Program-made: the position numbers and the translations under genes | Source of the DNA: Brytella acorum | GTDB lineage: Bacteria > Pseudomonadota > Alphaproteobacteria > Acetobacterales > Acetobacteraceae | NCBI RefSeq assembly: GCF_029309905.1 | Contig: NZ_JARBJP010000007.1 | Location: forward strand, 62,001 to 126,000 | DNA: 64,000 nucleotides | Direction: 5' to 3' | Shown here: positions 36,095 through 40,310 of the stretch, in pieces | Numbering within the stretch: position 1 is the first letter of the stretch | Layout of the letters: each line of letters opens with the position of its first letter | Notes under the pieces: generated by a model | Told to the model about the DNA's origin: nothing | The model's database searches: none | What the model saw: the letters and a program-made list of their open reading frames with translations, nothing else

Positions 36095-36301
36095 TCAGGC
36101 CCCGGGCTCGCGCAATCGCGCCACCATATCGTTGAAAAAAACCCGCATCGCCTCCGGCGCGACGCCCATCAGCACCGCGTCCTCGAAGGCATCCTGCATG
36201 ACCTGCCGCAGCTCTTCCTCGTTCTCGCGCAGAACCTTCAGCTTTTCCACGCAGCCGATCGGCGCGCCGTCGCGGTCCAGCCAGGCCGTCGCAGCACTCA
36301 T
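36095..36301 (-). CDS. Small conserved protein between mlaD and DUF2155 gene
   Basis: A 68-aa acidic, helical protein (LRENEEELRQVMQDAFEDAVLMG). It starts within the mlaD stop (ATGA overlap 36298-36301) and ends 2 bases before the next start, which strongly suggests a real operon member. No signal or membrane segment; function unknown. Confidence 0.65.
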   Translation of the reverse strand: MSAATAWLDRDGAPIGCVEKLKVLRENEEELRQVMQDAFEDAVLMGVAPEAMRVFFNDMVARLREPGA

Positions 36302-36816
36302 TCCAGCCCTCCCGAGGCCTTCCCCGACTGCGGCTTGGATTTCTGCAACGTATCCGTCACCGAGAAGATGAACTTGCTCAGCAACTGCTCCAGACTGATG
36401 GAGCCCTGCGTCTGGATAACTTCGCCGCCCGCCTTGAGCATCGTCTCGCTGCCACCCGGCGAGAGCGCGATGTACTTGCCGCCCAGCAGGGAGTCGGACG
36501 TAACGATCGCGGCGCTGTCGACCGGCAGTTTGATATCGGGACGCACTGTAAAGGTCACGCGTGCCCTGAAATCCTTGGGATCCACGACCTCGCCCGTCAC
36601 ATGCCCGACGGTAATGCCGGAAAGACGGACGTCGGAACCGACATCGAGACCGTCAATCTGATTGAAAACCGCGTTCAACGGATAACCGTCGCTCCCCGAA
36701 CGATGTCGGCCGCCAATGGCGACCACGATCAGGACGACTAGAACCCCCAGCACCAGCAGACCGGTAACGAGTTCTACAGTGGCAGGGCGCGCACGGACGC
36801 CGGTCGCTGCACTCAT
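36298..36816 (-). CDS. mlaD: MlaD/MCE-domain lipid transport protein
   Basis: A 172-aa protein with one N-terminal membrane segment (LVTGLLVLGVLVVLIVVAIG) and an MCE domain: FNQIDGLDVGSDVRLSGITVGHV, then SDSLLGGKYIAL. It would anchor in the inner membrane and help move phospholipids between membranes as the substrate-binding part of an Mla-type ABC system. The permease and ATPase genes are not in the window. The following small gene overlaps its stop. The ribosome site is weak. Confidence 0.9.
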   Translation of the reverse strand: MSAATGVRARPATVELVTGLLVLGVLVVLIVVAIGGRHRSGSDGYPLNAVFNQIDGLDVGSDVRLSGITVGHVTGEVVDPKDFRARVTFTVRPDIKLPVDSAAIVTSDSLLGGKYIALSPGGSETMLKAGGEVIQTQGSISLEQLLSKFIFSVTDTLQKSKPQSGKASGGLE

Positions 36817-36918: not shown

Positions 36919-36962
36919 TTATCCCCCATATCCACGTTATACGGAGTATTATCCACCATATC
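36919..36962 (+). promoter_or_regulatory. 30-bp-spaced direct repeat in the TSCPD gene promoter
   Basis: TTATCCCCCATATC (36919-36932) and TTATCCACCATATC (36949-36962) differ at one base and start 30 bases apart, three helical turns. Between them is a near-palindrome, TTATAC-GGA-GTATTA. Helically phased repeats are typical of regulator sites such as those of NrdR or DnaA; TTATCCACC is one mismatch from a DnaA box. The repeats lie 52-95 bases upstream of the TSCPD gene. Confidence 0.5.
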
Positions 36963-37013
36963 GCAGGCTTTAAGGCGCTTTCTTGCGGTCTCCCGCAGGC
37001 CTAGGATCACGAC

Positions 37014-38579
37014 ATGACAGCAGCCCGCCAGTATTGGAACGGCGTTCGCATGCGCACTGCGCACGTCACCGCCGACCCCGATGACCCGACCGTCCAGTCC
37101 GTCATCCTGCCCGCCCCGTGGGACGACGAAGCCGCGTGCGCGCTGCTTCAGCTCGCACCGCCACGCGGCCCGGAATCGATGGCCGCCATCCGGCTGACCA
37201 CGGAAGCCGGTCGCTGGCTGGCGGAGATGGACGCCCTGCCCGCGCCCGCTTCCGGCAAAGATCTCCTGCCACCCGGCAAGGCGCTCGCCTGCCTCCTCCT
37301 GATGCGTCAGCTCGCGCCGATCGCGTCCGTCTGGCAAGGCATGCAGGATCGCAACGGCGGTTTCATCGTCAATCTTGCGGCCTTCGTTCAGGACGGACTG
37401 TTCGCCACCGACGCGTTCATCGCCAGCATCCGGCTGGCCTGCGACGTGCTACGGCGCAAATACGGGGTCGCGGCCGACACGCTGAACGGTGAACTCCCGC
37501 TTTTCGAGGCTCTCGCTCCACGTATGCCGGACGAAGAGACTCGAACCGGCCCCGCGGGCACGCTGCTTCTGACCAACCTCGACGCCTGCCTTGCCCTGCT
37601 GGGTATGGACTATGACAGCCATCTCGGCCGCGACGCCGCCTGCGCGCTGGCATGGCTGGCCTCATCTCTGGCCAGACAGGGAGCCGGGCCCGTGCCCCTG
37701 CCCCCGGCATCCCTTCCGATCCCCGGGCTGGCCGAGCATGCTGCCCTGATCCGCGACGAGAGCGGTATCGCCGAAGACGCGCCCCGTCATGCGCCGATCG
37801 AAACCGGCTTTTCGTCGCCAGGTCCCGTGGATGCGCTGCTCGGCGTCGAATCCTGCGGACTGACGCCCATCTTTTCCCCTCTGGACGCGGAAGGGCATCT
37901 GCGGCCTAGCACGATCGCGCGTCTGGCCCATCGCGGATTCACGCCCGAAACGGCTCTGGCCGCCGCCATGACCGGCACGTCTCCGATTTCCCTCCCCGGC
38001 CCGACCGCCCATCAGGCCATGCATCGCGCGCTGAACGGCTTCGTGGATCGCATGCCCGCGCGCCCGGACCCGCTCGCCCTGCCAAGCCGCCCCGCCCGCC
38101 TCGAACGCGGAACACGCCGCCCGCTCCCCGCACGGCATGGCGGCTTCACGCAGCGCGCTTCGGTCGGCGGTCACAAGCTCTATCTGCGGACGGGCGAATA
38201 CGAAGACGGCTCGATCGGTGAGGTTTCCATCGTTCCAGCCCGCGAAAGCGCGATGGTGCGCGGCCTGCTCGACAGCGTGGGACAGGCGGTGACGGTCGGT
38301 CTGCAATACGGCGCGCCACTGGACGCCTATGTGGCACGCTTCGCCCATACGCGTTTCGGTCCCTGCGGAACGGTCGAGGGCGATCCGATCGCAGCCTATG
38401 CCACGTCTCTGCTCGATTATGCGTTTCGGGCCCTGTCCGAAGCCTATCTCGGCAAGCGCCTGCCGGACGCGGCGCCGGAGGCCGAACCGGAAGCCATGGA
38501 AGATCCCATGCTTCCCTTGTCCATGCCCGAAGACTCAGGCACGCCGCGCCGCAGGGCGGGGCTGAGACTGGTCGGTTGA
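37014..38579 (+). CDS. TSCPD-domain protein, NrdJ C-terminus-like, no catalytic domain
   Basis: A 521-aa protein. Residues about 380-485 match the TSCPD region near the end of vitamin B12-dependent ribonucleotide reductase NrdJ: KLYLRTGEYEDGSIGEVSI, then GLQYGAPLDAYV, then FARTRF-like FAHTRFGPCG, and SSLLDYAFRAL-like LLDYAFRALSEAYLG. Class II reductases carry this after a catalytic barrel of several hundred residues; no such barrel, and none of its Cys motifs, are visible here. The first 370 residues have only faint resemblance to other NrdJ parts. It may be a regulatory or structural relative of NrdJ. The promoter contains a phased repeat pair. Confidence 0.75.
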   Translation: MTAARQYWNGVRMRTAHVTADPDDPTVQSVILPAPWDDEAACALLQLAPPRGPESMAAIRLTTEAGRWLAEMDALPAPASGKDLLPPGKALACLLLMRQLAPIASVWQGMQDRNGGFIVNLAAFVQDGLFATDAFIASIRLACDVLRRKYGVAADTLNGELPLFEALAPRMPDEETRTGPAGTLLLTNLDACLALLGMDYDSHLGRDAACALAWLASSLARQGAGPVPLPPASLPIPGLAEHAALIRDESGIAEDAPRHAPIETGFSSPGPVDALLGVESCGLTPIFSPLDAEGHLRPSTIARLAHRGFTPETALAAAMTGTSPISLPGPTAHQAMHRALNGFVDRMPARPDPLALPSRPARLERGTRRPLPARHGGFTQRASVGGHKLYLRTGEYEDGSIGEVSIVPARESAMVRGLLDSVGQAVTVGLQYGAPLDAYVARFAHTRFGPCGTVEGDPIAAYATSLLDYAFRALSEAYLGKRLPDAAPEAEPEAMEDPMLPLSMPEDSGTPRRRAGLRLVG

Positions 38580-38630: not shown

Positions 38631-39095
38631 ATGTCGGAAACGCCGCTCGATCGCCTCGCCGCCCTTGGCCTGACCCTTCCTCAGGCCGCGACCCCCGTCG
38701 CGACCTATGTCGCCGCCGTACAGACAGGCAATATGCTCGTTATCTCCGGGCAACTCCCGCTTGTTGAAGGCAAGCTCAGGGCGACAGGCAAACTCGGAGA
38801 CGTGATTGCGCCCGAACTCGGCAAAGAATGTGCCCGGCTCTGTCTGCTCAACGTTCTGGCCCAGGTTCAGGCCGCCATCGGCGATCTCGGCAAGGTCAAG
38901 CGCGTCGTCCGCCTGGGCGGTTTCATGGCCTGCACCCCGGACTTCACGCAGCATGCCGCCGTCATGAACGGCGCATCCGACCTCGCTGTGGCCGTGTTCG
39001 GGGACGCTGGCCGCCATGCCCGTTCGACTGTCGGCGTTCCGTCGCTGCCGCTAGACGCACCGGTCGAGGTCGAAGCCCTCTTCGAAGTCGGCTGA
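38631..39095 (+). CDS. RidA family protein
   Basis: A 154-aa protein of the RidA/YjgF/UK114 family, reading ISGQLPL, then GECARLCLLNVL-like GKECARLCLLNVLAQVQA, then VRLGGFM and HARSTVGVPSLPLDAPVEVEA. The Arg in HARSTV is the family's imine-binding residue. RidA proteins remove reactive 2-aminoacrylate-type intermediates, protecting PLP enzymes. A start at ATG 38631 is preferred over a TTG at 38619. It follows the TSCPD gene on the same strand, and a DUF482 gene comes next. Confidence 0.9.
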   Translation: MSETPLDRLAALGLTLPQAATPVATYVAAVQTGNMLVISGQLPLVEGKLRATGKLGDVIAPELGKECARLCLLNVLAQVQAAIGDLGKVKRVVRLGGFMACTPDFTQHAAVMNGASDLAVAVFGDAGRHARSTVGVPSLPLDAPVEVEALFEVG

Positions 39096-39161: not shown

Positions 39162-40310
39162 ATGCCGGAATGGTCACTGACACTGCACGCCTCGATCCAT
39201 GAGATCGACTCCGCCCTTTGGAACCGTTGCGCGGGAGGGGACAACCCCTTCGTCAGCCACGGCTTCCTGTCGGCCCTTGAAGACAGCGGCTCCGTCGGCG
39301 CCCGCACGGGCTGGATTCCGCGTCACGCCGTTCTGCGCGACCAGACCGGAACGATCGCCGCCGTCGCGCCCCTTTTTGGAAAGGGACACTCCTACGGAGA
39401 GTATGTTTTCGACCAGACATGGGCGCAGGCCTATGAGCAGGCGGGCGGACGCTACTACCCCAAGTTTCAGGTCGCCGTTCCCTTCTCTCCGGTCACGGGT
39501 CCACGCCTGCTGATCGATCCGGCCCAGCCGGAGCCGGAAATCCTCGCGCACGCCATGGCCGAAGCCCTCGCCCAGGCTTGCGACGAACTCGGACTTTCCT
39601 CAATCCACGCAACATTCTGCACGGCCACGGACCAGCAGCGACTGGTCGAGGCCGGATGGCTGGCGCGCTATGGCCTGCAATATCAGTGGCATAACCGCGA
39701 TTATCGCGACTTTGAAGATTTTCTCTCCGCGCTCTCGTCCCGCAAACGCAAGACGCTGCGCCGCGAACGCCGGGACGCGCAAGCCTGTGGCCTGACATTT
39801 CATACCAAGCAGGGTCACGACATCACCGACGCCGACTGGCGCGCTTTCTATCGGTTCTACCAGTCGACAGTGGATCGGAAGTGGGGCAACGCCTACCTGA
39901 CCGAACGTTTCTTCCCGCTTCTCGCCGCACGGCTCGGCGCCCAGGTCGTCCTCATGACCGCCGAACATGACGGCACGCCCGTTGCCGCCGCGCTGAACAT
40001 CATGGGCGGCGGCGTGCTCTACGGGCGCAACTGGGGCTGCGAGGGGCAGTGGCCCTTCCTGCATTTCGAGCTGTGCTATTATCGTGCCATCGAATTCGCG
40101 ATTGCGCACGGCCTCAGCCGCGTCGAAGCCGGCGCTCAGGGCGAACACAAAATTCAGCGCGGCTATCTGCCCGTCCTGACACGTTCGACCCATCACCTTC
40201 GAGATCCTGCCCTGCGCGATGCGGTCGCGAATTTTCTGGTCAGCGAACGGGACGCCATCATGGCCGAGAAAGACGCCCTGGAGACGTTATCTCCCTATCG
40301 CGACGCGTAA
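39162..40310 (+). CDS. DUF482/peptidogalycan-type GNAT acyltransferase
   Basis: A 382-aa protein of PF04339 (DUF482, FemAB-like, two GNAT-type domains). WIPRHAVLRDQTGTIAAVAPLFGKGHSYGEYVFD, then YYPKFQVAVPFSPVTGPRLL and QYQWHNRDYRDFEDFLSALSSRKRKTLRRERR are characteristic. FLHFELCYYRAIEFAI then EAGAQGEHKIQRGYLP ends the core. Family members are thought to transfer acyl or aminoacyl groups, but the acceptor is unknown. The ATG at 39162 is used; a TTG frame begins at 39126. Confidence 0.88.
   Translation: MPEWSLTLHASIHEIDSALWNRCAGGDNPFVSHGFLSALEDSGSVGARTGWIPRHAVLRDQTGTIAAVAPLFGKGHSYGEYVFDQTWAQAYEQAGGRYYPKFQVAVPFSPVTGPRLLIDPAQPEPEILAHAMAEALAQACDELGLSSIHATFCTATDQQRLVEAGWLARYGLQYQWHNRDYRDFEDFLSALSSRKRKTLRRERRDAQACGLTFHTKQGHDITDADWRAFYRFYQSTVDRKWGNAYLTERFFPLLAARLGAQVVLMTAEHDGTPVAAALNIMGGGVLYGRNWGCEGQWPFLHFELCYYRAIEFAIAHGLSRVEAGAQGEHKIQRGYLPVLTRSTHHLRDPALRDAVANFLVSERDAIMAEKDALETLSPYRDA

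What the first reader, a model, noticed from the sequence alone, without database searches (positions are those of the whole stretch)
36919..38579. Orphan NrdJ-tail protein with a phased promoter repeat
The gene encodes the TSCPD region of class II ribonucleotide reductase without its catalytic barrel. The promoter holds TTATCC[C/A]CCATATC twice, 30 bases apart. Regulators of ribonucleotide reductase genes often use helically phased boxes. A free-standing tail could sense or modulate dNTP synthesis.
Basis: partly seen in the sequence, partly recalled or inferred. Interest (0 to 1): 0.65.

Follow-up and report, generated by a model that had tools for sequence, protein, structure and literature searches.

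The report
Shrunken, catalytically dead ribonucleotide reductase
This gene looks like what is left of a DNA-building-block enzyme (class II ribonucleotide reductase) that lost its active site but was kept, in its old place on the chromosome, by most sampled members of a bacterial family, which suggests that its tail has a second job.

Summary
The gene (37014-38579, 521 aa) and the repeat (TTATCC[C/A]CCATATC at 36919 and 36949) are real. The protein is not a bare NrdJ tail: it aligns collinearly with NrdJ over shrunken barrel pieces plus TSCPD. The radical-cysteine motif and the C-terminal CxxC are gone. It sits where nrdJ sits, between divergent mlaD and ridA, in 2 of 38 outgroup loci. A TSCPD match is listed in 141 of 150 genomes of the order; none of the 150 reaches the full NrdJ cut-off. 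Whole-gene dN/dS is 0.08-0.30 in 10 pairs. Other reduced NrdJ forms occur in other alphaproteobacteria.

A NrdR-type box pair, in 24 of 36 cases spaced exactly 32 bp, lies upstream in 36 of 49 promoters (0-2 of 50 in four control windows; outgroup nrdJ 25 of 35). In the window and six close relatives it is eroded (0 of 7). The first repeat copy is conserved in 16 of 50 promoters; two exact copies occur only here.

So 'orphan NrdJ tail with RNR-type control' is largely right for the family, less so for this promoter. Its function (non-catalytic accessory or regulator of dNTP supply) is inferred, not shown.

The parts
37014..38579 (+). free-standing shrunken NrdJ derivative, 521 aa, no catalytic motifs
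37365..37952 (+). barrel remnant (residues 118-313), collinear with NrdJ 499-735
   Evidence: hhalign without TSCPD E 2.7e-15; 20 column shuffles best E 0.2
37029..37154 (+). weak N-terminal remnant (residues 6-47), like NrdJ 13-58
   Evidence: hhalign E 0.029 as second match (0.0026 when residues 1-60 are compared alone); collinear
38109..38483 (+). TSCPD region (residues 366-490)
   Evidence: model of the domain pLDDT 76.8
38505..38528 (+). C-terminal PMLPLSMP motif (relatives often PLLPLDLP), followed by a conserved LRLV(G/S)-type end; not seen in the NrdJ aligned here
36919..36932 (+). repeat copy 1 TTATCCCCCATATC; exact TTATCC[AC]CCATATC in 16 of 50 promoters (own included), 90-97 bp before the start
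36949..36962 (+). repeat copy 2 TTATCCACCATATC; a second exact copy only in this genome among 50 promoters
36932..36947 (+). degenerate NrdR-like box CCACGTTATACGGAGT, in the place of CCACAATATACAGTGG of relatives such as L130
   Evidence: score 15 of 23; alignment
36298..36816 (-). mlaD (MlaD PF02470), divergent neighbour shared with the nrdJ locus of two outgroup genomes
38631..39095 (+). ridA-like (YjgF) downstream neighbour shared with the nrdJ locus
39162..40310 (+). FemAB-like (PF04339) neighbour

Best explanation
The gene is an in-place remnant of nrdJ. Shown: it is collinear with NrdJ, has lost the catalytic and reducing cysteine motifs and most of the barrel, occupies the place that nrdJ has in two outgroup genomes, and is kept by purifying selection in most sampled genomes of its order, most of which (27 of 30 tested) carry a close class I NrdA. 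The promoters of most relatives keep a NrdR-type box pair, which in the window has eroded to one degenerate box next to a conserved TTATCC[AC]CCATATC element. Inferred: the retained TSCPD domain does a non-catalytic job in dNTP supply or its coupling to replication, as a protein- or ligand-binding accessory produced when NrdR repression is lifted.
For: Homology: hhalign of 21 free-standing proteins vs 18 NrdJ, probability 100, E 4.9e-64, residues 118-490 to NrdJ 499-1094; non-TSCPD part alone E 2.7e-15; a relative (L072) also hits NrdJ_Z (27.3 bits) and the RNR barrel model just under its cut-off. Dead: NPCSE in 18 of 18 NrdJ, 0 of 21 free; tail CxxC 18 of 18 vs 0 of 21. Locus: 2 of 38 outgroup loci (L001, L023) show mlaD, nrdJ, ridA in the same order and strands, 6 of 38 show ridA; of 60 free loci 56 show ridA, 44 femAB, 24 mlaD. 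Spread: TSCPD match listed in 141 of 150 genomes of the order, 0 of 150 reach the NrdJ cut-off. Selection: whole-gene dN/dS 0.075-0.301 in 10 pairs, TSCPD 0-0.200. Promoter: NrdR pair p<0.05 in 36 of 49 vs 2/50, 1/50, 2/50, 0/50 in control windows; nrdA 18 of 26, outgroup nrdJ 25 of 35. Parallels: G043 (278 aa), G271 (272 aa), G273 (663 aa), Asticcacaulis L033 (929 aa).
Against: No experiment links the protein to dNTPs. Neither the window genome (p 0.176) nor six close relatives (L063-L068) have a significant NrdR pair (0 of 7); six further promoters also lack one (L073, L091, L124, L125, L138, L139). The pair statistic leans on a strong first box: other spacings still give 14-24 of 49. 32 of 38 outgroup nrdJ loci show none of the window's neighbours within their flanks (many are from other phyla). 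9 of 150 genomes lack a listed TSCPD match, and one of them (G062) has NrdA, so the protein is not obligatory for NrdA. G013 keeps the gene without the NrdA type of the others, so that NrdA cannot be a universal partner.
Confidence: 0.6

Rival explanations
1. The TSCPD protein has left dNTP metabolism and now does something else, for example metal or sulfur handling, RNA/DNA or clamp binding; the NrdR-type promoter is inherited baggage that is eroding.
For: Many of the best structural matches of the TSCPD model are IscU/SufU chains (Foldseek ranks 1-5, best E 8.7e-03; VIA Z up to 6.8). The NrdR pair is not significant in the window and six close relatives. The C-terminal PLLPLDLP motif loosely resembles the clamp hexapeptide QL[SP]LPL quoted in PMC3836487.
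Against: No match reaches E 0.001; the top VIA row is a lipoyltransferase (Z 7.4), and the tool warns that Z under 8 may be only a common arrangement. Most promoters of the family keep the NrdR pair at a near-fixed place. The motif lacks the leading Q.
Confidence: 0.25
2. The TTATCC[AC]CC repeat is mainly a DnaA-type element that ties the gene to replication initiation.
For: TTATCC lies in 25 of 50 promoters, its reverse complement in 1 of 50; [TC]TATCC[AC]C in 30 of 50, with a copy 79-97 bp before the start; perfect TTATCCACA in 5 of 50. DnaA activates class Ia RNR genes in E. coli (PMC4009431, passage).
Against: The two window copies are imperfect DnaA boxes (TTATCCCCC, TTATCCACC); in distant relatives TTATCCACA overlaps the NrdR box CCACA and may follow from it; the DnaA box consensus is recalled.
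Confidence: 0.25
3. A split class II enzyme: this protein is the tail subunit of a separate NrdJ barrel.
For: It keeps NrdJ tail sequence; a free barrel plus free tail could in principle reassemble.
Against: The genome shows no NrdJ barrel: the only other RNR catalytic match is NrdA of class I, with NrdB beside it. No conserved cysteine and no CxxC.
Confidence: 0.03
4. A pseudogene drifting to loss.
For: Large deletions; 9 of 150 genomes lack a listed match.
Against: No stops inside any match listed; dN/dS below 1 in every part of the gene in all 10 pairs (highest 0.631, C-tail on 27 codons).
Confidence: 0.02

Closest known systems
Class II ribonucleotide reductase NrdJ of the alphaproteobacterial type (NCBIfam NF005736 / PRK07562)
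   Same: collinear sequence, TSCPD domain, chromosomal place between mlaD and ridA (as in 2 outgroup loci), NrdR-type promoter in most relatives
   Different: 521 instead of about 1220 aa; barrel mostly deleted; radical-cysteine motif and C-terminal CxxC lost
TSCPD domain family PF12637
   Same: domain present over the curated cut-off (38 vs 22.8 bits)
   Different: free-standing with shrunken barrel pieces and a family-specific C-terminal motif; no relative of known structure found by sequence
NrdR regulon (NrdR box pairs at RNR promoters)
   Same: pair of palindromic 16-mers, in 24 of 36 significant cases 32 bp start to start, upstream of the gene in most relatives scored
   Different: the gene is not an active RNR; pair eroded in the window genome; no binding test
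NCBIfam PRK06948 'ribonucleotide reductase-like protein'
   Same: barrel remnant of one relative hits it weakly (L072, E 4.5e-05)
   Different: 604-aa model; the window protein does not hit it at E 1

Membership tests
Class II RNR NrdJ (active enzyme) | thiyl-radical cysteine motif NPCSE | tested here: not met
   18 of 18 NrdJ, 0 of 21 free-standing
Class II RNR NrdJ (active enzyme) | C-terminal redox CxxC | tested here: not met
   18 of 18 NrdJ, 0 of 21 free-standing
Class II RNR NrdJ (active enzyme) | score over curated cut-off of NF005736 (1737 bits) | tested here: not met
   130.5 bits
Class II RNR NrdJ (active enzyme) | adenosylcobalamin-dependent ribonucleotide reduction | not testable with these tools
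   needs biochemistry
NrdJ-derived (descent) | collinear homology beyond TSCPD | tested here: met
   E 2.7e-15 without TSCPD, 20 shuffles best 0.2
NrdJ-derived (descent) | same chromosomal locus as nrdJ in outgroups | tested here: met
   mlaD, nrdJ, ridA in 2 of 38 outgroup loci (L001, L023); ridA about 2 kb on in 4 more; 32 show no shared neighbour within their flanks
TSCPD PF12637 | score over gathering cut-off | tested here: met
   38 vs 22.8 bits
NrdR regulon | pair of NrdR boxes about 31-32 bp apart upstream, family level | tested here: met
   36 of 49 promoters p<0.05; controls 0-2 of 50
NrdR regulon | pair of NrdR boxes in the window genome itself | tested here: inconclusive
NrdR regulon | NrdR encoded in the genome | tested here: met
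   168.9 bits, cut-off 124.65
NrdR regulon | NrdR binding and repression | not testable with these tools
   needs EMSA/MST and reporter assays
DnaA-regulated promoter | perfect TTATCCACA box in the window promoter (consensus recalled) | tested here: not met
   only imperfect TTATCCCCC and TTATCCACC; perfect box in 5 of 50 promoters
IscU/SufU/SufE-type fold | structural match of the TSCPD model | tested here: inconclusive
   Foldseek best E 8.7e-03; VIA Z up to 6.8 among these chains, top row a lipoyltransferase at Z 7.4

The most novel reading that the evidence does not exclude
The NrdJ tail (TSCPD domain) has an unrecognised function that outlasts ribonucleotide reduction. In several alphaproteobacterial lineages nrdJ lost its catalysis and the tail was kept, in one nearly whole family still with NrdR-type boxes, so that dATP-sensing NrdR regulates a dead RNR that acts as a non-catalytic effector of dNTP supply or replication.
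Probability: 0.5. Interest if true: 0.75.

Novelty: new variant of a known kind. Interest (0 to 1): 0.6.

Why it matters
A pseudo-enzyme derived from an essential DNA-precursor enzyme, kept by most sampled genomes of a family and tied by its promoter to the RNR repressor, would show that the uncharacterised NrdJ tail does something separable from catalysis. If the family is, as I infer, the acetic acid bacteria and their kin, the question can be tested in easily grown bacteria that have no full NrdJ. I did not look up how these genes are annotated elsewhere.

Tried and rejected
Split class II RNR: rejected, no NrdJ barrel found in the genome. Pseudogene: rejected by dN/dS. Phage origin: PHROGs gave no match at E 0.1. 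Regulon search with the promoter motif: exact matches occur only at this gene in the 8 genomes tested; of the single-mismatch sites I looked only at the surroundings of L044 and L045 (which then stopped with an error) and saw no clear regulon. The search for a second copy found one copy only; the genus holds no other genome here.

One origin for all reduced NrdJ forms: the best TSCPD trees place G043, G271 and Asticcacaulis among full NrdJs, but the AU test does not reject one clade (p 0.154) and long branches are in play. Independence therefore rests mainly on the different parts kept: G043 keeps a C-terminal CxxC and no barrel, while the window family keeps barrel remnants and no CxxC. G273 was placed with the window family without strong support (94/88).

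Fold search: no match at E<=0.001; no PDB relative by sequence (the three hits at E 0.045-0.76 look like chance). Full-length model: pLDDT 44, only TSCPD confident, made on an alignment that is poor in the middle.

Print: the word TSCPD is in 2 of 5.39 million papers, one of them clinical (listing). The listings, and the 15 shown of 107, name no paper on this protein. Papers PMC12051234, PMC9110341, PMC4009431, PMC4409342, PMC3836487, PMC3019208 and PMC9531940 were seen as passages only; PMC4409342, PMC3019208 and PMC9531940 gave nothing used.

Full report
OBSERVATION. The ORF 37014-38579 (+, 521 aa) carries the TSCPD domain PF12637 at residues 384-478 (38 bits, cut-off 22.8) and hits the NrdJ model NF005736 only at 967-1083 of 1222 (130.5 bits against a cut-off of 1737). 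The repeat TTATCC[C/A]CCATATC is at 36919-36932 and 36949-36962, 30 bp apart. With up to 2 mismatches these are the only matches in the window; 3 of 100 shuffles have two or more. In eight genomes (own and seven relatives) the exact motif was found seven times, in six genomes, each time upstream of this gene or its orthologue (gene positions). G013 has a one-mismatch copy there and G009's contig begins inside the gene.

THE GENOME. The whole assembly (3.32 Mb, 42 contigs, 99.8% complete) shows no full NrdJ and one copy of this gene. Its RNR is class I: NrdA (693 aa, 1031 bits to PRK09102, cut-off 620) with NrdB close by on the same contig. NrdR is present (168.9 bits, cut-off 124.65).

NOT A BARE TAIL. 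I aligned 21 free-standing relatives, own included (A1), and 18 full NrdJ (A2). hhalign gives probability 100 and E 4.9e-64, with residues 118-490 collinear to NrdJ 499-1094 and large gaps on the short side. With the TSCPD part removed, residues 118-313 still match NrdJ 499-735 at E 2.7e-15, while the best of 20 column shuffles reaches 0.2. Three further weak matches are in the right order (6-47 to 13-58, E 0.029; 295-346 to 807-885, E 0.13; 85-109 to 134-158, E 0.46); alone they prove nothing. A relative (L072) also hits NrdJ_Z at 347-408 (27.3 bits) and the Pfam RNR barrel model at 23.2 bits, just under its cut-off of 23.9. The motif NPCSE is in 18 of 18 NrdJ and 0 of 21 free-standing proteins, the tail CxxC likewise 18 of 18 and 0 of 21, and no alignment column has more than 6 cysteines of 21. 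The protein therefore looks like a shrunken, catalytically dead NrdJ.

SAME LOCUS. In two of 38 outgroup loci, L001 and L023 (both alphaproteobacterial), a full nrdJ lies between divergent mlaD and ridA, as this gene does; L001 also has femAB further on. In four more (L005, L011, L012, L016) ridA lies about 2 kb downstream. The other 32 show none of the window's neighbours within their flanks; many of them belong to other phyla. Of 60 free-standing loci, 56 show ridA, 44 femAB and 24 mlaD; many loci are cut before mlaD, so these are lower bounds. The gene is best read as the positional orthologue of nrdJ.

SPREAD AND SELECTION. Of 60 genomes searched with the protein, own included, 50 had a match: all 36 of the own family, with open frames of 74-678 aa apart from one of 1071 aa (short ones are pieces, often on fragmented contigs); and 14 of 24 genomes of other families, in frames of 1128-1327 aa except G043 (282 aa). 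In the order, 0 of 150 genomes reach the NrdJ cut-off and 141 of 150 have a listed TSCPD match; the nine without are G062, G070, G074, G116, G123, G151, G162, G166, G193 (the list was cut at about E 2e-20, so some may hold a more diverged copy). 27 of 30 genomes tested have a close NrdA, 75-100% identical, one of them (G004) in part only; G023 and G026 gave none and G013 only a distant one. NrdB is present in 8 of 8 tested. Whole-gene dN/dS (Nei-Gojobori) is 0.075-0.301 in 10 pairs; N-terminal plus barrel part 0.078-0.339; TSCPD 0-0.200; C-tail 0.084-0.631 on 27-39 codons. Whole-gene dS exceeds 1 in two pairs, so those ratios are rough.

PARALLEL CASES. In the class, 94 of 152 genomes have a TSCPD match, 87 of these in frames of 1100 aa or more (my count). 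Of the seven shorter, G237 is at a contig edge and G272 comes from a 640-contig assembly and was not checked; two are f1 (G000, G060). Three are new: G043 (278 aa; divergent mlaD on one side, ridA and femAB on the other; keeps a CxxC tail and has no barrel), G271 (272 aa, single-contig genome; of the window's neighbours only a DUF2155-like gene is near) and G273 (663 aa with a barrel remnant of 52.7 bits, ridA downstream, mlaD divergent). All three have a catalytic subunit that scores like the own class I NrdA (207-224 bits to NrdJ_Z, own 216) and no NrdJ over the cut-off; that these are class I is inferred. Asticcacaulis L033 (929 aa) keeps TSCPD but scores only 382.5 bits to NF005736. TSCPD trees put G043, G271 and L033 among full NrdJs, but one clade is not rejected (AU p 0.154). 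Several losses are likely, not proven.

PROMOTER. The NrdR box consensus acaCwAtATaTwGtg is from PMC4009431 (passage); most sites are two boxes with a 15-16 bp spacer, and 14-17 bp spacers bind (PMC12051234, passages). I scored pairs at 30-33 bp start to start in 150 bp before the start codon. Of 60 loci, ten were dropped before scoring (L069, L080, L083, L086, L070, L075, L119, L126, L127, L129: contig edge or unsure start), and L079 was too short, leaving 49. A pair with p<0.05 against 300 dinucleotide shuffles occurs in 36 of 49; the spacing is 32 bp in 24, 33 bp in 8 (all genus g66), 31 in 2 and 30 in 2, with box 1 72-91 bp before the start, e.g. CCACAGGATTTTGTGG ... CCACAAAATACACTTC. By hand count this is 22 of 35 genera. 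Controls in the same loci: 2 of 50, 1 of 50, 2 of 50, 0 of 50. Wrong spacings give 14-24 of 49, because box 1 alone is strong. By the same score, with 100 shuffles, nrdA promoters (200 bp; some starts mis-set) give 18 of 26, the own nrdA among them, and outgroup nrdJ (250 bp) 25 of 35. Sequences of one genus are not independent.

In relatives such as L130, TTATCCCCCATAT is followed directly by a good box CCACAATATACAGTGG. The exact motif is in 16 of 50 promoters, 90-97 bp before the start; only the window has two exact copies, but L066 has a second TTATCC at the same 30 bp, L122 two TTATCCACA 32 bp apart, and L067 a second TTATCC 40 bp on. TTATCC occurs in 25 of 50 promoters and its reverse complement in 1 of 50; perfect TTATCCACA in 5 of 50. 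A second factor, perhaps DnaA, may therefore read this element.

MECHANISM. Shown: descent, locus, loss of catalytic motifs, selection, box pairs in relatives. Inferred: NrdR represses the gene when dATP is high (mechanism in PMC9110341, passages) and the protein acts without catalysis. The class I RNR may be its partner, but G013 keeps the gene without that NrdA, having instead a class II-type RNR over the NrdJ_Z cut-off, and G062 has NrdA without a listed TSCPD match; so a strict NrdA subunit is unlikely. The TSCPD model (pLDDT 76.8) finds mostly IscU/SufU chains at the top of Foldseek (best E 8.7e-03) and a lipoyltransferase (Z 7.4) followed by IscU/SufU chains in VIA-align, below any firm threshold. 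A conserved C-terminal PLLPLDLP-type motif loosely recalls clamp-binding hexapeptides (PMC3836487, passages). These are leads only.

VERDICT. A new variant of a known kind: a NrdJ-derived pseudo-enzyme whose family keeps NrdR-type promoter boxes. The exact 30-bp repeat is a local oddity on top of it.

Noticed in passing
L034: A record titled Klebsiella pneumoniae MAG carries a NrdJ that groups with Myxococcota NrdJs in the tree: probably a mis-binned contig.
   Followed up: no
L175 (G013:C1:2441776-2443584): G013 lacks the NrdA type of most other family members tested but has a class II-type RNR over the NrdJ_Z cut-off: perhaps RNR replacement in one genus.
   Followed up: no
L033:1868-4654: Asticcacaulis taihuensis carries a 929-aa NrdJ-like protein with a diverged barrel, an intact-looking TSCPD domain and no CxxC tail.
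   Followed up: partly
window:38505-38579: Family-specific C-terminal motif of the type PLLPLDLP ... LRLV(G/S), not seen in the NrdJ aligned here.
   Followed up: partly
L045, L098, L099, L100: Single-mismatch variants TTATCC[AC]CAATATC occur once each in four of eight genomes; whether they are orthologous sites was not worked out.
   Followed up: no
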